This document shows, piece after piece, positions 8,138-45,774 of a DNA stretch of 64,000 nt. Both the position numbers and the translations under genes were made by a program. The first letter of the stretch is position 1. Each line of letters starts with the position of its first letter. The stretch lies in NCBI GenBank assembly GCA_023053545.1, contig JAKZAN010000004.1:2666001-2730000 (forward strand). The letters are read 5' to 3'. Source of the DNA: Lepidurus packardi (Eukaryota > Arthropoda > Branchiopoda > Notostraca > Triopsidae). The notes under the pieces are model-generated. The model saw only the letters and a list, made by a program, of their open reading frames with translations. It searched no databases and was not told where the DNA came from.

Positions 8138-8469
8138 TTAATAACGGGCTGGGGCAGGGTAGACAGCGGGGGCAGGGTAGACAGCGCGGGCAGCGTAGGC
8201 GGCAGGGGCAGCATAGGCTGGGGAAGAGTAGGTCGGGGTACGAACGGTGGCCCAGACAGCGGCGACTTCTGGGGTATGTTGGGTAGCGACGGGCAAGTGG
8301 TCACCCATGGGTTGAAATCCGTTCTCGTCAGCAACCCACGTCAAAGTGAAACGTTCACTACTAGGGGCAATCCAGTAAGAGTTTTCCGAGGTTGGTGTTG
8401 CCAGATTCGTAACCGATCTGCTTCTGGACTTGAGCTTCGTCACGGGTCGTGCCGTCAGATCCGGCCTAG
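8138..8469 (-). pseudogene. Cuticle-protein pseudogene (exon 2 only), reversed
   Basis: The minus strand carries a complete RR-1 exon 2 ending in repeated YPAPA and ARY, most like the gene at 45209. Three lesions are visible. The conserved TAC (Tyr) at its start reads TAG. The splice acceptor AG is lost (TGG precedes the exon). A frameshift near 8380-8395 falls between the GNTN region and the SYWIAP region. The signal-peptide exon and promoter expected at higher coordinates are absent; LINE sequence begins within about 100 bp instead. Confidence 0.8.

Positions 8470-18773: not shown

Positions 18774-18833
<60 letters not shown>
18774..18833 (+). repeat. Poly(A) tract of 60 bases
   Basis: An uninterrupted run of 60 A follows GATACAATTT. 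It could be the tail of a retroposed sequence or simple-repeat expansion. No obvious source gene is visible upstream. Confidence 0.9.
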
Positions 18834-19530: not shown

Positions 19531-20799
19531 ATGAAAATATTTCAGGTATGATGTGCTTGTTTTTAAGTAATATTTAAAGCTTTTTAATCGCTAAAAATAC
19601 TTATTATGTATTAACACGTAAGATTTTTTTGCGGATTGCAAAGAATTTGAATTGTAATAAACTATTATATTATTGACTTGCTCATTTCATTTGATTCACA
19701 GGTAGCATCAGTCATGGTGCTGTGCATCTTCCTTAGACAGAGCTCCGCGGACAAAGGTGGCAAACATACACGTAAGTTATTTGTATGGCTAAGATCGGTA
19801 ACGAACAAGTATTAAATTACAAAATTTTGAACTACAGCTAGTTATGGAGGCGGTAGCAACAGCTATGACACTGGAAGCGCCTATAGCGCCGGAGTAGGCG
19901 GGATTGCCGGAGGTGGCTATGGCGGCGGAGCGTCGTACGGTGGAGGCGCAGTTGGAAGTAGTTATGCTCCAGCATATGGAAGTGTCGGAGTAGGAGGCAG
20001 TCATGGTGGTAAAGGATCTGCTGGTTACGGCGGATCTGCGGTTGGTGGTAGCGGATATGGAGCTGTTGCAGGTAGTTATGGCGGAGCAGTCAGTAGCGGA
20101 TATGGCAGCGGCGACCATGGAGGATCCGTTGGTGGTGGATACGGCAGCGGTGGTCATGGAGGATCTATCGGTGGCGGATACGGTAGCGGCGGTCATGGTG
20201 GAGCTACTGGAGTCGGTTATGGCGGAACTGTTGGAGGAGGATACGGTAATGGCGGAGCTATCGGAAGCGGATACTCTAGCGGTGGTCATGGAGCATCTAT
20301 CGGTGGTGGATACGGTAGCGCTGGTCATTTTGGAGCTATCGGTGGCGGATACGGTAGCGGCGGTCATGGTGGAGCTACTGGAGGCGGTTATGGCGGAACT
20401 GTTGGACGAGGATACGGTAATGGCGGAGCTATCGGAAGCGGATATTCTAGCGGTGGTCATGGAGCATCTATCGGTGGTGGATACGGTAGCGTCGGTCATG
20501 TTGGAGCTATCGGTGGCGGTTATGGTAGCGGCGGTCACGGTGGAGCTATCGGAGGCGGATATGGTAGCACCGGTCACGGAGTATCCGTCGGTGGCGGCTA
20601 CGGTAGCGCTGGTTATGGTGGAGGTACCGGAAGCGGATATGGAAGTGGCGCTCAGGGTAGTGTTGGCGGTGGGTACAGCAGCGGCGGCCATGGAGGGTTC
20701 GCTCCAGTCGCTAGTCCTTATGGTGGAGGAGTACCTGTTCCGACATATTCTGCTCCAGTGTACTTTGGAGGCGGTTCGTCTTCCGGCTACGGACGCTAA
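19531..20799 (+). CDS. Secreted glycine-rich repeat protein
   Basis: Three exons (19531-19545, 19702-19771, 19838-20799) encode 348 residues. The N-terminus, MKIFQVASVMVLCIFLRQSS then ADKG, is a signal peptide split over two tiny exons. The rest is almost entirely Gly, Ser, Tyr, Ala and His, built from units such as GGGYGSGGHGG and SIGGGYGS (about 12-13 residues each), closing with a Pro/Val-rich piece and SSSGYGR. The composition resembles structural cuticle, adhesive or silk-like glycine-rich proteins; no enzymatic domain is present. AATAAA is at 20904-20909. Long open frames on the other strand and frames of this region are by-products of the repeat. The exact function is unknown. Confidence 0.78.
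20201..20542 (+). repeat. Two copies of a 171-bp (57-residue) higher-order coding repeat
   Basis: GAGCTACTGG occurs at 20201 and 20372. The sequence that follows (the GGAACTGTTGG, TACGGTAATGGCGGAGCTAT and GGTCATGGAGCATCTATCGG segments) is nearly identical in both. The duplication keeps the reading frame of the glycine-rich gene, indicating repeat-unit expansion by unequal exchange. Confidence 0.75.
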
Positions 20800-22329: not shown

Positions 22330-23608
22330 TTAGTCTGTTCCAAAATATTTTTGACCAAAATGATTCGGCGCAATGTGGTGAAGTTCCGAGGTCAAAATTT
22401 TCATCTATACAAAGAAAAGGAAAAGAGAAGAAAATAAAATAAATAAAAAATATTCAATTAGTAATTTCTTTTCCACAATGTAGGATATAGCGTACCTGAG
22501 GAAAAGCAGAGACAATCGTTTGCGTTGCCTGGGGCGTGCAGAAAAGGTTGATAAGAATGATATTTTCTTCGGGCACACTGTGTTCTTTTAGTACACTCAC
22601 AGCTTTAATGACAGTATTCCCCGTACCTAAAATGTTAACGTTTTAAATTGAATGAAACAAACAAAAGAAAAAGTTAAATAAGCCAGCTAAATACACACGA
22701 TTAATACTAAGAAAAAAATACAAGAAGCTTTTGATATAGAAAAACGTACTCATGATCGGGTACATCAACAAAACCTTTCGGTTAGCGATATCTTCAGGGA
22801 ATTTAGCATAGACTACTCGAGCTTCATGTGTATCATGGTCCGAATCTATCAAGATCTTCCCTATTCTTATTGAGCGACAGCAGTCCCGTAATCCCTAAGT
22901 TACAATAATGAATTAGTGTCGTTTTTGAGAAAACTGAAATAAAGGCTACCTGTTCCATGGCTTCACCCGATCTTACAATGCTCACACCACAATTTCCTTT
23001 CTGGTACTGCAAGCCTTCATAGCTGCAACCCGTAGGCGTGGTCACGGTGGTTTGTGTGTAGGGCAATTGATTTAGCCCTTCTTCAATTACTAACCGTATC
23101 TGAAGAAGAGACAAATCTGACACAAAAAGAAAAGAAAAACGCTTCATTTTGCTTAAGACTAAACTAATTAACTGGCTAGGCTTTTAAGGGGCTTAAAGGA
23201 TAAGCCGATTAAGATAAGCCATATATAGTGACGTAAATAAATTAAGTGAGTATAACTAAATATTTAAAAGCTAATTTAAAAAAAAAAACTTACTAGTCTA
23301 TCGGCGTAGAATTTGAAGTCGCTTCGGGAAGTATTCCTGGAATCAAGCAAACGTAACATTTCTTTCTTATGCAATATCACTAATCTCTACACATATTAAA
23401 CAATAAATTGCAATAATAAATTAACTCACTGCAAACATAAATACGACGAAGCTAAAGTTAAACATGATAAACAGATATAAAATATTCATATAAAAAGATA
23501 AGAAGAAATTCACCTGTCTCTGATTATGGTCTGAAGCTCCTTTAGCTGTAAATCAGCAGAAAGCACTTTAAAATTACCTCCAAATTCAGTAACTGGTTTA
23601 GGTACCAT
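22330..23608 (-). CDS. UPRT: Uracil phosphoribosyltransferase homologue (UPRT)
   Basis: Six minus-strand exons (23514-23608, 23294-23336, 22950-23099, 22750-22894, 22496-22626, 22330-22404) give a continuous 212-residue frame. It follows animal UPRT from end to end: LKELQTIIRDR, FYADRLIRLVIEEGLNQLPY, TTPTGCSYEG, GNCGVSIVRSGEAMEQ, KVLLMYPIMSTGNTVIKAV and the C-terminus FGQKYFGTD. The family makes UMP from uracil and PRPP in the pyrimidine salvage pathway, although animal members may lack activity. GEAME and STGNT lie in the phosphoribosyl-binding region. The 4.9-kb transposon begins about 40 bp upstream of this start codon, so its promoter is displaced or supplied by the element. Confidence 0.88.
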
Positions 23609-23641: not shown

Positions 23642-23647
23642 AATACT
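23642..23647. repeat. Left target-site duplication of the TIR element
   Basis: AATACT abuts the left terminus. Because CAATACTGAACTTGGG also occurs inside the element's array, a chance or element-derived origin of this hexamer is possible. Confidence 0.55.
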
Positions 23648-23755
23648 GTTGCGACCCAAGTTCGATATCTGCCCGAGTTCGAGCTCGGGCAGCCCAAGTT
23701 CGTACTTGGGTAGACACTGAACTTGGGACGCGAGGCATCTGCCCAAGTTCGATGC
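23648..23755. repeat. Left palindrome-rich terminus of the TIR element
   Basis: After the 14-bp terminal repeat come CTGCCCGAGTTCGAGCTCGGGCAG (near-perfect palindrome, one mismatched pair) and CCCAAGTTCGTACTTGGG. AACTTGGG/CCCAAGTT modules continue to about 23752. The right end (28440-28506) has the matching ACCCGAGTTCGAACTCGGGT design. Confidence 0.75.
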
Positions 23756-24489
23756 TTAAAAGTATGAACTTTATATTTGACGTGAACATTTTGCAGAGGC
23801 GTGCCATTTTCCAAAAGAAGGGTGTAGCTTTGGATGTGACTTTATCTACTTGCAAACATGATCCGTTGGAGTCGCTGTTAATTGTATTTTCTCTCCGGTA
23901 TAAAGCTTATTAAAATTGTTATTCTTTCTTTATTCAATCCGTGAACAAAAATATAAACAAATGGTATCTCTTTTAACGGAAAAGATTTAGTGAACTTATT
24001 TATTAAATAAATTTAGATTTAGTGAATTTATTAAGTTACTTAACTTAGACAGACACAGATTCATTTTAAATGTATTTTGTATTTATATATTTCATAGAAA
24101 TCGAAGGATGCTTAAAACTTCTCATTCGACATCCAAACATAGACCTTCGTTGTGTCAAATCTCCTACTTTCTATTCAAGTTTGTACTTGTGAATGTAACC
24201 CTTTCTTAGTGATTACACCGTTGCGTTTCATGTATTGTTCATGCAGTTAAAATAGTGAATAAAGTGTTAATAAACTTTTTTGTTGTTAAGAAAAGGAGAC
24301 CGCGTTGCTCGGTCTCTTTGTATTCGCGTATTAAATAAAATCGATACATCTGATAGAATAATAAACTTGATGAAATTAATTAACTGGTTTCTTTTTGTTC
24401 TGAAAATGCGATGGAAAAAGTGCTCTCTCTACATAATACTGAACTTGAGCTACCCAGCATAAGTTCGAACTATTGGGTAAACATATAGC

Positions 24490-24860
24490 TCAAGAATTCC
24501 CCATAAGCGTCATGTTTTGAGAGAGTTTTTATAAGATTTAATAGCACACTTAACCTGTTGACATAATAAATTAAGTGGTTTATCTTTGTGCTGTGAACAT
24601 GCTATGAGAAGGGGCTTTTTCTACACAATACCGAACTCGGGCTCCCAAAAGTTAGAACTCTATCGGTAATAGCCCTATATTGTTCAAGAATTGAGACAAT
24701 ATTGTAAAATTTGATTGAATAAAAATCTTGCTTATGATTTTAAAAAGTTTGAGAGACCTTTCGTAAAATTGTATAAAATAATAAGCTTATTGATGTAATA
24801 AATTAAGTGGTTTATCTTTTTGTCGTGAACTAGCTGTGAATAGTCCTTTCTCTACGCAAT
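24490..24860. repeat. Left arm of a 371-bp internal inverted repeat
   Basis: This stretch (starting CTCAAGAATTCCCC, ending CTTTCTCTACGCAAT) recurs as its reverse complement at 25782-26152, with small differences. The two arms enclose the tandem array, so the region could fold into a very long hairpin. Confidence 0.75.
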
Positions 24861-25757
24861 ACTGAACTTGGGCTCCCCAAGTTCAAGAAATCCCCATAAA
24901 CGTCCTATTTTGAGAGAGTTTTTATAAGATTTAATAGCACACTTAACCTGTTGATGTAATAAATTAAGTGGTTTATCTTTTTGTCGTGAACTAGCTGTGA
25001 ATAGTCCTTTCTCTACGCAATACTGAACTTGGGCTCCCCAAGTTCGAACTCGGGTAACCCGAGTTCGAACTCGGGGAGCCCAAGTTCAAGAAATCCCCAT
25101 AAACGTCCTATTTTGAGAGAGTTTTTATAAGATTTAATAGCACACTTAACCTGTTGATGTAATAAATTAAGTGGTTTATCTTTTTGTCGTGAACTAGCTG
25201 TGAATAGTCCTTTCTCTACGCAATACTGAACTTGGGCTCCCCAAGTTCGAACTCGGGTAACCCGAGTTCGAACTCGGGGAGCCCAAGTTCAAGAAATCCC
25301 CATAAACGTCCTATTTTGAGAGAGTTTTTATAAGATTTAATAGCACACTTAACCTGTTGATGTAATAAATTAAGTGGTTTATCTTTTTGTCGTGAACTAG
25401 CTGTGAATAGTCCTTTCTCTACGCAATACTGAACTTGGGCTCCCCAAGTTCGAACTCGGGTAACCCGAGTTCGAACTCGGGGAGCCCAAGTTCAAGAAAT
25501 CCCCATAAACGTCCTATTTTGAGAGAGTTTTTATAAGATTTAATAGCACACTTAACCTGTTGATGTAATAAACTAAGTGGTTTATCTTTTTGTCGTGAAC
25601 TAGCTGTGAATAGTCCTTTCTCTACGCAAAACTGAACTTGGGCTCCCCAAGTTCGAACTCGGGTAACCCGAGTTCGAACTCGGGGAGCCCAAGTTCAAGA
25701 AATCCCCATAAGCGTCCTATTTTGAGAGAGTTTTTGTAAGATTTAATAGCACACTTA
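24861..25757 (+). repeat. Tandem array, 203-bp unit with a 42-bp palindromic module
   Basis: The marker ACTGAACTTGGGCTCC occurs at 24861, 25022, 25225, 25428 and 25631, spacings of 161, 203, 203 and 203 bp. The first unit lacks exactly the 42 bp (GAACTCGGGTAACCCGAG, then TTCGAACTCGGGGAGC and CCAAGTTC) that turn a simple 9-bp-arm hairpin into a multi-palindrome. Units are nearly identical, indicating recent homogenisation. Confidence 0.85.
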
Positions 25758-25781
25758 TAGTATTGTATTGTATTGCGTAGT

Positions 25782-26152
25782 ATTGCGTAGAGAAAGGACT
25801 ATTCACAGCTAGTTCACGACAAAAAGATAAACCACTTAATTTATTACATCAATAAGCTTATTATTTTATACAATTTTACGAAAGGTCTCTCAAACTTTTT
25901 AAAATCATAAGCAAGATTTTTATTCAATCAAATTTTACAATATTGTCTCAATTCTTGAACAATATAGGGCTATTACCGATAGAGTTCTAACTTTTGGGAA
26001 CCCGAGTTCGGTATTGTGTAGAAAAAGCCCCTTCTCATAGTATGTTCACAGCACAAAGATAAACCACTTAATTTATTACATCAACAGGTTAAGTATGCTA
26101 TTAAATCTTATAAAAACTCTCTCAAAATAGGACGCTTATGGGGATTTCTTGA
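25782..26152. repeat. Right arm of the 371-bp internal inverted repeat
   Basis: Reverse complement of 24490-24860 with scattered substitutions. It is followed at 26152-26213 by another cluster of TTCGAACTCGGG palindromes just before the envelope relic. Confidence 0.75.
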
Positions 26153-26229
26153 ACTTGGGCTCCCCGAGTTCGAACTCGGGTTACCCGAGTTCGAACTTGG
26201 GGAACCTAAGTTCGGTATTGTGTAGAAAA

Positions 26230-27959
26230 AGCCCTTTCTCTGCGCACAACAACAGAACGCAAATCAAACATCTGACCTTCACAGACAGTCGCCAACGTAG
26301 CATAGAGAAACTCGACACCGCAATGCTAAAATTCATCAAAGAAATGCAAACAAAACGAAACGACGAAAATAGACAAATCAAAATTGAACTGGACGCCATT
26401 AACAGTACCTTGAGACACCTAACATTGAGATACCTAAGAGACACTAATGAAGGCCATTTCATACGAAGATTCAACCCCCAACTTAATTCCGAGGAAAAAA
26501 CGGGGAATCCTTAACGGTGGAGGTGAAGTCTTGCGCTGGCTTTTTGGCACCCTTAGCAGCAAAGATCTAGAAGACATTAACCGAAAATTCAGCAGGATAA
26601 CAAAGGACAATATAATGCTGTATCATTTAGAAGAACAACAGGCTACATTACTAAACGGCACGTACCTGCAGGTCCGGAAAAATGTGGACGCTATTTCAAA
26701 AATTACGAAAGCAGTGAGTAGCCTTGCCAGTAGTGTTGAAGACCTCGAAGCTGTGATTTCAGAATTTGGAGATTTTTATGCGTTTACGTGGAATTTTGCT
26801 CGAAAATTGGACAACGCTTATCATACCCTTGGTACCATTATACTTTGGTTACACCAAAACGTTAATAACATGAACACGGGCTTGTCAACAATAGCGTCAG
26901 GACGACTTTCACCAAACATAATTCCTCCAACAGAGCTATGGCAAATTCTTCAAGAAGTAAGCCGCTACCTATCCCGCAAAATCTTCGTGGACATACCACT
27001 ACAAGATTTAAGTACTACACTTGATCTATATCAACTAATAGCTCTACCGACTTTTTTACCTGGAGGGAATTTCTCAGTTGACACAATACGATTATCTCGG
27101 CTTAACAAGCGACAGACAGTCGTATGTTGAATTTACTTCCTCAGAATTGGCAGAAACTTGTACAACAGGATCAGCGAAGATTTGCTCCACCAGTAAAGCC
27201 CTCACGCGTGGCATCCATGGGCGCTCTTGCTTGTATGCTGCGTTCTTTAATGATACTGTCTTGATTGCGGAATTGTGCAAAAAGACAGTCCGAATAGACG
27301 GCAGGCCATGGTGTCATTACCTTGGGAAAAACAAATGGATCTATTCAATACCTCAACCACTGCAACTTACAATATCTTGCCCAGAAGAACGACGTCCAGA
27401 AGCCTACAGCAAGAGTTCCAGTGTCCAGCTAAATGATGTGGGCATCTTAGAACTACCGGATGGCTGCTCAGCTCACTCCGGGTGGTGGACCTTTCCGGCA
27501 AACTTGGAAAAACTTAATAATTATACAATCCACACCAGCACTATAGACGTAAAAAATATCTTTTCCGATTTAGATTTTAACTTACCATATCCTGTTGTGC
27601 AACTCCCAAAACCAAATCATCAATGATTAACGCAAATTACCAAAGACATTTCGGAAGACCTACAGAAAAAAAGTACATTAGACCCAAATTGGGAAATCAG
27701 ATACAAGTTGTTCGAAAAAGCAGTTCGAGATTCAAAACCTATTTTTAATAATCTGAGTGACGAAATTTCGTATGTCTGTCTGACCCAAAGCTTCTTGACC
27801 CAATTTTTACTATACTGTTGGGCTGTTGTGATTACTGCCGCCACAATATTTGCCCTCCCTGCCATCATCTATATGTTTTTGAGGCTTAGATGGCTGACAA
27901 GAAAACAAATTGAACTACGTCGTCTCTGGCAAACCTTACTTGATGTTGATGATAAATAA
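26230..27959 (+). pseudogene. Broken F-type (baculovirus F / errantivirus Env-like) envelope gene
   Basis: The region shows the layout of a class I-like F fusion protein in three reading frames. First is an N-terminal helical piece (about 26230-26514). Then comes a basic furin-type cleavage motif (RKKR near residue 20 of the frame opening at 26447) followed by a Gly-rich fusion-peptide-like segment and a long helical ectodomain. Next is a Cys-rich C-terminal ectodomain (27078-27626). Last is a hydrophobic membrane anchor with a basic tail (about 27790-27905). Two frame changes (near 26450-26510 and 27080-27130) and one in-frame stop (27624-27626) interrupt it, unless unrecognised introns are involved. 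Such genes occur in baculoviruses, Gypsy-group errantiviruses and some Mavericks. No pol gene accompanies it. Confidence 0.7.
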
Positions 27960-28506
27960 GTAGGGTATAGTGAATTATAAATTCCAACTTGTAATTCAAT
28001 ATTATTATTATAATAACCATACCTGGATATCCAACTTCTGCATGCTATACGTTTGAGCTACTGTTATTATATGAGTGAACATTAGTTACCAAGAAACTTT
28101 TCAAGTACTGTACCCCAAAAACAATAATAAAAATAATGATACATATAAATTGAGGAGTGACAAGCACAACTCTACTCTTTAGTGATGAAAGTCGACACAA
28201 GTGGCGTAAACTGCAGTTCTAAGTAGCCCCTCCTACATGCAACGCCTCCAAGTAAAGTAGTCTACACTCCACTGTAAACAAAACTTGTCATGTAAACTTC
28301 GAAGATAAATATTTAAATAAGTTGTGAAATTACTGCCAAGGTAATAATGCCAAATTAAAGATAACTAAAGCAATAAACTGTATTGTTAATTTCACTTTCA
28401 AAAACTGTGTAGGTGTGGAGAACTTTAGTGTCAAATATTGCTACCCGAGTTCGAACTTGGGTTACCCGAGTTCGAACTCGGGTAGAGGCTCTACTTGGGT
28501 CGCAAC

Positions 28507-28512
28507 AATACT
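28507..28512. repeat. Right target-site duplication of the TIR element
   Basis: AATACT abuts the right terminus in the same orientation as the left copy. Confidence 0.55.
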
Positions 28513-45208: not shown

Positions 45209-45774
45209 ATGAAATTCTTCTTGATCGCCGCTTTCTTGGCTGCTGCCTCCGCAGCTAGCGTGTATCCTGCAGCTTACCCCAGCTACGCTAAGCAGCCCGA
45301 GATCACCATCGTGAGCCAAAGCGATGTCCGCAACCCAGACGGAAGCAGCCAATGGAGGTAAAAAAAATCTTTAGCAATTTTCTGTAAAGATTAATTTAAC
45401 TTGATTTTTAAAAATTCTTTTCTAGCTACGCCGGATCTGATGGTACGACCCGCGAAGAATCTCAAGTCCAGAAGCAGATCGGTTACGAATCTGGCAACAC
45501 CAACAAAGGATCTTCTTACTGGATCGCCCCTAATGGCGAACGTTTCACTTTGACCTGGGTCGCTGACGAGAACGGATTCCAACCCAAGGGTGACCACTTG
45601 CCCGTTGCCCCTGAACACACCCCAGAAGTAGCTGCCGTCTGGGCCACCGTCCGTACCCCAACCTATTCTGCCCCAGCTTATGCTGCCCCCGCTGCCTACC
45701 CTGCACCCGCCGCCTACCGTGCCCCAGTTGCCTACCCCGCCCCGGCTGTCTATCCCGCCCCCGCCCGTTATTAA
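45209..45774 (+). CDS. RR-1 type cuticle protein, remote paralogue
   Basis: Exons 45209-45357 and 45426-45774 encode 165 residues. The signal peptide is identical to that of the cluster genes. The mature start is VYPAAYPSYAKQPEITIVSQ. The RR-1 domain differs by a GYESGNTNKG turn and SYWIAPNGERFTLTWVADEN. The C-terminal tail is long and repetitive (YAAPAAYPAPAAYRAPVAYP), longer than in the other paralogues. AATAAA is at 45817-45822. The pseudogene at 8138-8469 is its closest relative, sharing GYESGN and the YPAPA tail. This suggests that a copy of this type once also sat in the main cluster. Confidence 0.88.

What the first reader, a model, noticed from the sequence alone, without database searches (positions are those of the whole stretch)
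23642..28512. Unclassified TIR element carrying an F-type envelope gene, with 6-bp target duplication
Seen: 14-bp perfect terminal inverted repeats, flanking AATACT repeats, 4,859 bp between, and a broken F-like fusion-protein gene in three frames. Known: F-type envelopes occur in errantiviruses (LTR elements), baculoviruses and some Maverick/Polinton elements; 6-bp duplications are typical of Mavericks. Inferred: a non-autonomous DNA element captured or retained a viral fusogen, perhaps as a derivative of a larger virus-like transposon in the same genome. A TIR element of this size with only an envelope gene is unusual. Caveat: AATACT also occurs in the internal array, so the target duplication is not certain.
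Basis: partly seen in the sequence, partly recalled or inferred. Interest (0 to 1): 0.88.

Follow-up and report, generated by a model that had tools for sequence, protein, structure and literature searches.

The report
Crippled Ginger-like transposon carrying envelope gene
A 4.9-kb stretch of what looks like an arthropod genome is a disabled copy of a larger, recently active cut-and-paste DNA transposon that has a retrovirus-like integrase and carries a broken virus-type membrane-fusion gene, a pairing reported before in virus-like Maverick transposons.

Summary
It spans 23647-28507 (4,861 bp, TGTTGCG...CGCAACA) and is flanked by a 4-bp duplication (ATAC).

Full-length copies are about 12.8 kb. 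They hold a gypsy-type (rve) integrase in several open pieces, cysteine-rich pieces and a PHD finger, between long inverted repeats, plus the envelope gene. No polymerase, ATPase, protease or capsid domain was found in the frames scanned. The window copy lost the integrase; a nearly identical derivative sits elsewhere with another duplication, so such derivatives moved in trans. This fits a Ginger2-like transposon, not a Maverick; the Ginger2 target preference is not met and no integrase tree was built.

The envelope gene is a frame-broken, apparently 5'-truncated F gene; none of 14 copies checked is whole. Other F genes of the genome are at most about 31% identical over long matches. A sister element carries PAN-like genes instead. 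Best view: a new Ginger-like family with captured surface-protein cargo, its fusogen now probably inert.

The parts
23643..23646 (.). left copy of the 4-bp target duplication (ATAC)
   Evidence: read directly; identical 4-bp flanks in 16 of 18 both-ended copies
23647..28507 (.). the element: 4,861-bp internally deleted, non-autonomous copy of a ~12.8-kb TIR transposon, TG...CA termini
23647..23713 (+). left terminal inverted repeat (14 bp perfect, then imperfect arm with CCCGAGTTCGA-type motifs)
24487..24863 (+). remnant of the left internal inverted-repeat arm
   Evidence: 98% complementary to 25779-26155; lies in the outer part of the 2.2-2.4-kb arms that flank the integrase core in full-length copies
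24876..25757 (.). 203-bp tandem array (4.3 copies) with CCCGAGTTCGAACTCGGG palindromes
   Evidence: motif counts against shuffles
25779..26155 (-). remnant of the right internal inverted-repeat arm; the ~5-kb integrase core and the inner part of both arms are missing in this copy
26131..26511 (+). frame upstream of the furin-like site, putative F2 part of the envelope gene; it starts inside the repeats and shows no signal peptide by eye
   Evidence: assigned by position; no Baculo_F match of its own
26438..27127 (+). F1 N-terminal piece: RKKR furin-like site (codons from 26492) and fusion-peptide-like GILNGGGEVLRWLFGT (motif names recalled); shorter than in other copies by an internal deletion
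   Evidence: Baculo_F E=1.1e-5
27042..27623 (+). F1 middle piece in another frame
   Evidence: Baculo_F E=2.7e-5, 23.4 bits, just under the 24.1-bit cut-off
27627..27956 (+). F1 C-terminal piece with a hydrophobic membrane-anchor-like stretch and short tail
   Evidence: no Baculo_F match of its own (a sub-cut-off NdhL match to the hydrophobic part); anchor by eye; corresponds to the end of the 541-aa open frame in copy C1:7276
28441..28507 (-). right terminal inverted repeat with two CCCGAGTTCGAACT(C/T)GGG palindromes
28508..28511 (.). right copy of the 4-bp target duplication (ATAC)

Best explanation
This is an internally deleted, non-autonomous copy of a ~12.8-kb cut-and-paste DNA transposon of the Ginger type (closest to Ginger2). 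Shown: TG...CA inverted ends, 4-bp target duplications, and an rve (gypsy/retrovirus-type) integrase in several open pieces in full-length copies, with cysteine-rich pieces and a PHD finger further along the same strand. Inferred: that these pieces are exons of one transposase, which binds the CCCGAGTTCGA repeats at the ends, excises the element and joins it to target DNA at cuts 4 bp apart. Shown: the window copy lacks the integrase core. Inferred: deletion between the long internal inverted repeats removed it, and a transposase supplied in trans moved the derivative. The envelope gene is a passenger: an F-type fusogen gene captured long ago, perhaps from an errantivirus-like retroelement, now frame-broken and apparently 5'-truncated, and not needed for the family's recent spread.
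For: 4-bp duplications in 16 of 18 both-ended copies and one empty-site paralogue. Integrase: rve E=1.3e-9 for the DD piece; rve_3 6.1e-4, under its cut-off, for the E piece. One of the four cysteine-rich pieces matches TCR/CXC (E=2.8e-4, 21.5 bits against a cut-off of 23.5); PHD E=5.8e-6, over its cut-off. No GPY/F or YPYY motif in the 12 core pieces scanned. 11 integrase cores are ~100% identical; in 8 of the 11 the DD piece is one open frame. Deletion derivatives have moved as such: the window copy and C2:7.464 are collinear apart from array differences and a short internal deletion with different duplications, ATAC and GGTC; C2:8.387 and C5:6.751 form a second such pair (both have GGGT but different flanks). 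Envelope: the upstream frame and the F1 frame differ in 14 of 14 distinct copies checked (17 loci, about 6 further copies not checked). Published Ginger2 features: TGTNR ends, 50-180-bp TIRs, 4-bp duplications (PMC2836005, section 6 read).
Against: The duplications do not follow the Ginger2 target RTATAY (one TATA among the 16 matching ones). Pfam found no H2C2 finger, and the other three cysteine-rich pieces did not match CXC (one gave a sub-cut-off TILa match, one a sub-cut-off lectin match). The element is about twice as long as the longest Ginger2 listed in 2010 (6.7 kb). No phylogeny was built. Splicing and transcription were not tested: that integrase, cysteine-rich and PHD pieces form one protein is inferred from order and strand. 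That the break upstream of F1 is a true lesion rather than an intron or recoding is likely but not shown, and an upstream exon could supply a signal peptide.
Confidence: 0.82

Rival explanations
1. A Maverick/Polinton derivative that kept only the envelope gene.
For: Integrase and a putative fusogen occur together in nematode Mavericks (PMC10680173, one passage seen).
Against: 4-bp, not 6-bp duplications (6 bp is given for Polinton in a passage of PMC10045372); no polymerase B, ATPase, protease or capsid hit in the full-length copy's frames scanned; integrase split in pieces and followed by cysteine-rich and PHD pieces.
Confidence: 0.04
2. A virus-like transposon: the envelope, when complete, gave the Ginger-like element cell-to-cell or between-host transfer, and the broken copies are the decayed remainder.
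For: An envelope C-terminal remnant (28+10 aa) also lies in L059 and L060, integrase relatives about 24% diverged at DNA level that look like copies of one another, so the association is older than the present expansion. One of 14 copies keeps a 541-aa F1 frame up to the membrane anchor. A sister element (C3:2804842-2811814, duplication AGCA) carries PAN-like genes instead.
Against: No capsid or replication genes found; the upstream frame is broken from F1 in 14 of 14 copies checked, and 6 of the 14 lack the exact RKKR site; near-identical copies with split envelopes dominate the recent expansion.
Confidence: 0.1
3. An errantivirus-like LTR element rearranged so that its ends became inverted repeats, explaining integrase and F gene together.
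For: Both gene types occur in one retroelement frame of this genome (L054: H2C2, rve and Baculo_F).
Against: Integrase and envelope lie on opposite strands in 9 of 11 cores, separated by long inverted repeats; the integrase is split in pieces and followed by cysteine-rich and PHD pieces; no reverse transcriptase hit in the frames scanned; copies end at TIRs of about 67 bp, not LTRs.
Confidence: 0.04

Closest known systems
Ginger2/TDD DNA transposons (PMC2836005; passages and section 6 read)
   Same: TGTNR termini, TIRs in the 50-180-bp range (about 67 bp here, imperfect), 4-bp target duplications, gypsy-type DDE integrase, no GPY/F or YPYY motif seen
   Different: 12.8 kb against 2.75-6.7 kb; no RTATAY target preference; cysteine-rich and PHD pieces downstream; long internal inverted repeats; captured envelope gene
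Maverick/Polinton with fusogen in nematodes (PMC10680173, one passage seen; a candidate adintovirus envelope is mentioned in a passage of PMC11071296)
   Same: DNA element with integrase and a virus-type fusogen gene; cargo capture
   Different: 4-bp, not 6-bp duplications; no polymerase B or capsid genes found; the envelope here matches the F type
Endogenous nimaviruses with a Ginger2-like integrase in sesarmid crabs (PMC10871703, passages seen)
   Same: Ginger2-like, intron-containing integrase joined with viral genes and TIRs in arthropod genomes
   Different: those are 265-285-kb viral genomes; here a small transposon holds one virus-type gene
Errantivirus-like Gypsy elements with baculovirus-F-type envelopes (label recalled)
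   Same: F-type envelope with furin-like site and fusion-peptide-like sequence; such frames are in this genome
   Different: there F sits with pol-type genes; the envelope here is at most about 31% identical over long matches and sits in a TIR element

Membership tests
Ginger2 | TGTNR termini | tested here: met
   TGTTG...
Ginger2 | 4-bp target duplication | tested here: met
   16 of 18 both-ended copies; empty-site paralogue
Ginger2 | TIRs of about 50-180 bp | tested here: met
   about 67 bp within the element, imperfect, 14 bp perfect
Ginger2 | DDE integrase core of gypsy type | tested here: met
   rve E=1.3e-9 over the DD part; the E piece only weakly matched, rve_3 6.1e-4, under its cut-off
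Ginger2 | H2C2 zinc finger | tested here: inconclusive
   CPYC seen by eye in the piece before the core; no Pfam H2C2 match
Ginger2 | lacks GPY/F and YPYY | tested here: met
   no match in the 12 core pieces scanned; short exons could have been missed
Ginger2 | RTATAY target preference | tested here: not met
   one TATA among the 16 matching duplications
Ginger2 | integrase clusters with Ginger2 in a tree | not tested
   no reference set at hand
Maverick/Polinton | 6-bp target duplication | tested here: not met
Maverick/Polinton | polymerase B, ATPase, protease, capsid genes | tested here: not met
   no such Pfam hit; of the 28 frames of 90 aa or more in L009/L010, 18 were scanned, plus smaller pieces; the other 10 are mirror copies (3), envelope frames scanned in their window form (3), array frames (3) or flank (1)
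F-type envelope | Baculo_F profile match | tested here: met
   72.6 bits for copy C1:7276; window pieces; solved 'fusion protein' chains E=1.5e-9 with that copy's 541-aa frame
F-type envelope | complete frame with signal peptide, F2, furin site, F1 and membrane anchor | tested here: not met
   0 of 14 distinct copies checked; splicing not tested

The most novel reading that the evidence does not exclude
A lineage of Ginger-like cut-and-paste transposons repeatedly picks up genes for surface proteins (F-type fusogen, PAN-like proteins, a small cysteine-rich membrane-protein-like ORF in its invertible arms) and once used the fusogen to spread between cells or hosts, as an envelope-bearing transposon without capsid or polymerase.
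Probability: 0.1. Interest if true: 0.82.

Novelty: new variant of a known kind. Interest (0 to 1): 0.52.

Why it matters
Fusogen genes in DNA transposons are reported from Mavericks, which carry their own polymerase and capsid and can move genes between species (PMC10680173 passage). An integrase-only transposon with the same kind of gene, and a sister element carrying other surface-protein-like genes, would suggest that envelope capture is not confined to virus-like elements, and would let one ask directly whether the envelope ever helped such an element to spread.

Tried and rejected
6-bp duplication and Maverick link: rejected. CXC pieces reading TTCGAA: LIN54's tandem CXC domains bind TTYRAA (PMC4974476, abstract and passages), and TTCGAA is enriched in the element (15 against a shuffled mean of 1.9, maximum 7). 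But most of these lie in tandem repeats, the left 200 bp hold none, TTYRAA as a whole is not enriched (22 against 17.4), and TTCGAA is also somewhat above shuffles in the rest of the window (38 against 25.2), so this stays a guess. Protein-database relatives of one integrase piece and one envelope piece: none at E<=0.001. Envelope piece in viral contigs: none; the integrase piece gave 10 loci at 29-37% identity; ORFs of five of them were only sized. Rfam and tRNA scans of the window: nothing. PDB for the 76-aa integrase piece: nothing. Relative L091: end fragment only, no left end or cargo found. Joined flanks of the other 17 sites: no uninterrupted paralogue among the fetched loci (the whole genome was not searched for them). 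Whether such an element is in print: searches of an open-access PMC library listed none that I recognised from titles and abstract starts; most subscription papers are not held.
Full report
Observation. The window lies in an unnamed 108.6-Mb assembly of 344 contigs. A cuticle-protein domain in the window (Chitin_bind_4, E=9.7e-6) suggests an arthropod; the species is not known. The terminal inverted repeats are present, and ends at 98% identity or more recur 21 times (left) and 20 times (right), the window's own included; the tool calls such counts lower bounds. Comparing copies puts the ends at 23647 and 28507 and the duplication at 4 bp: 16 of 18 both-ended copies agree exactly (7 one-ended copies and 2 older relatives in that call were not counted). 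The 6-bp AATACT holds in the window because the bases next to ATAC happen to match the element's terminal T and A. One copy (C1:4.386) lies in another repeat whose uninterrupted paralogue matches the joined flanks with a single GGCC, identical over 42 bp that include 16 bp past the junction.

The larger element. Full-length copies are about 12.8 kb, for example C3:8525754-8538587 and C3:6607574-6620406. Read as two pieces, the first shows: TIR; a left stretch without a recognised gene; a 2.2-2.4-kb inverted-repeat arm that includes the tandem array; a core of about 5 kb; the second arm; the envelope gene; TIR. The core carries, on the minus strand, an integrase in several open pieces (N-terminal part, CPYC piece, DD piece with rve E=1.3e-9, E piece with rve_3 6.1e-4 under its cut-off), then four cysteine-rich pieces, one of which matches TCR/CXC (E=2.8e-4, under its cut-off), and a PHD finger (E=5.8e-6). 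That these are exons of one gene is inferred. No Pfam hit to polymerase B, ATPase, protease or capsid was found; 18 of the 28 frames of 90 aa or more were scanned, plus smaller pieces, and the remaining 10 are mirror, envelope, array or flank frames. Eleven ~100% identical cores exist. In 9 the core has one orientation relative to the ends and in 2 (C3:6.607, C3:7.592) the other, by strand comparison, seen in sequence for both. Inversion between the arms or assembly error could explain this.

The window copy. It lacks the core and the inner part of both arms. C2:7.464 has nearly the same structure at another site with another duplication, and C2:8.387 and C5:6.751 share a second derivative. 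So derivatives without the integrase have transposed, which argues for action in trans. The window copy sits about 35 bp upstream of a likely start codon of a UPRTase-like gene (start by eye; UPRTase hits E=2.2e-10 and 6.5e-10) and about 440 bp past the end, by eye, of an ABC-transporter-like gene (ABC_tran hits).

The envelope. Two window pieces match Baculo_F, with a furin-like RKKR and a fusion-peptide-like stretch (motif names recalled); the C-terminal piece and the upstream frame have no match of their own and are assigned by position. A 541-aa frame, open as it stands in copy C1:7276, matches solved 'fusion protein' chains (E=1.5e-9), and the profile scores that copy at 72.6 bits. In all 14 distinct copies examined (17 loci; about 6 further copies not examined) the upstream frame and the F1 frame differ. 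F1 is one frame reaching the membrane anchor in 1 of 14; in 3 it is a frame of 478-512 aa that stops short of it; in the other 10 it is split. The exact RKKR is present in 8 of 14. Evidence for a missing 5' end: about 85 codons separate the repeats from the RKKR site, against 150-176 residues from frame start to the furin-like site in L053, L055, L057 and L058 (but 71 in L056). Profile matches of the family start at 82 or later, while the best F genes of the genome start at 32-40, though several other F genes there also start late, so this is suggestive only. Outside the family the long matches to F genes in the genome are at most about 31% identical. In the fetched loci, L054 holds H2C2, rve and Baculo_F in one frame; L053, L055, L057 and L058 have pol-like frames nearby by eye. 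An envelope remnant of 28+10 aa also lies in L059 and L060, whose integrase is about 24% diverged in DNA. The two look like copies of each other, and the remnant is more similar (92% in DNA) than the integrase. The association therefore predates the present expansion.

Relatives with other cargo. C3:2804842-2811814 (in L061) has similar ends (82-88%), TG...CA termini and duplication AGCA, but its middle holds three PAN-like pieces, one above and two just below the curated cut-off. On one example, this suggests that cargo in this lineage is exchangeable.

What it is. TGTNR ends, 4-bp duplications, TIR length, integrase type and lack of GPY/F fit Ginger2 as described in PMC2836005 (section 6). 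The RTATAY target is not met, the H2C2 test is inconclusive and no tree was made, so I call it Ginger2-like and do not file it as a strict member. Polinton membership fails on duplication length and on the gene content seen. Precedents for Ginger2-like integrases with viral genes (nimaviruses, PMC10871703 passages) and for fusogens in Mavericks (PMC10680173 passage) exist. My searches listed no Ginger-type transposon with an envelope gene.

How it works. Shown: movement with 4-bp duplications, and movement of derivatives that lack the integrase. Inferred: integrase-type cut-and-paste by a protein joining integrase, cysteine-rich and PHD parts; binding of the CCCGAGTTCGA-type repeats (15 in the element against a shuffled mean of 0.00 and maximum of 1; many of them come from tandem copies, so the count overstates independence); loss of the core by recombination between the arms; the envelope as an inert passenger today.

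Noticed in passing
L061 1143-8115 (G000:C3:2804842-2811814): Sister TIR element (ends 82-88% identical, duplication AGCA) with three PAN_1-like ORF pieces in place of integrase and envelope.
   Followed up: partly
L009/L010 and L011/L012: Integrase core in two orientations between near-identical 2.2-2.4-kb inverted repeats (9 against 2 of 11 cores): invertible segment or assembly error.
   Followed up: partly
L009 2675-3137 and its mirror copy L010 2523-2985: Small cysteine-rich, membrane-protein-like ORFs in each inverted-repeat arm; no Pfam match over a cut-off; resemblance to PSI-type domains is only by eye.
   Followed up: partly
L053-L058 (e.g. G000:C3:70483-72060, C1:2795296-2796780): F-type envelope genes in open frames of about 580-700 aa (one 1187-aa frame with integrase), several near pol-like frames: errantivirus-like retroelements in the same genome.
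   Followed up: partly
G000:C2:7991759-8015214: Two element copies in tandem with an N gap at the junction; the outer flanks share the 4-mer GCAC.
   Followed up: partly
window 23511-23608: The insertion lies about 35 bp upstream of a likely start codon of a UPRTase-like gene on the minus strand (start by eye).
   Followed up: partly
window 8151-8211 and 45683-45764: Similar 18-bp tandem repeats in two ORFs in opposite orientation; the first lies in a cuticle-type gene, the second looks like a paralogue by eye.
   Followed up: no
window 19831-20799: Glycine-rich 322-aa ORF made of 39/171-bp tandem repeats.
   Followed up: no
window 18774-18833: Run of 60 A, possibly an assembly or masking artefact.
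   Followed up: no
L071 535-5251: A 4.7-kb insert with inverted ends rich in GGGCCCA repeats inside one element copy; the same repeat type hosts the C1:4.386 copy.
   Followed up: partly
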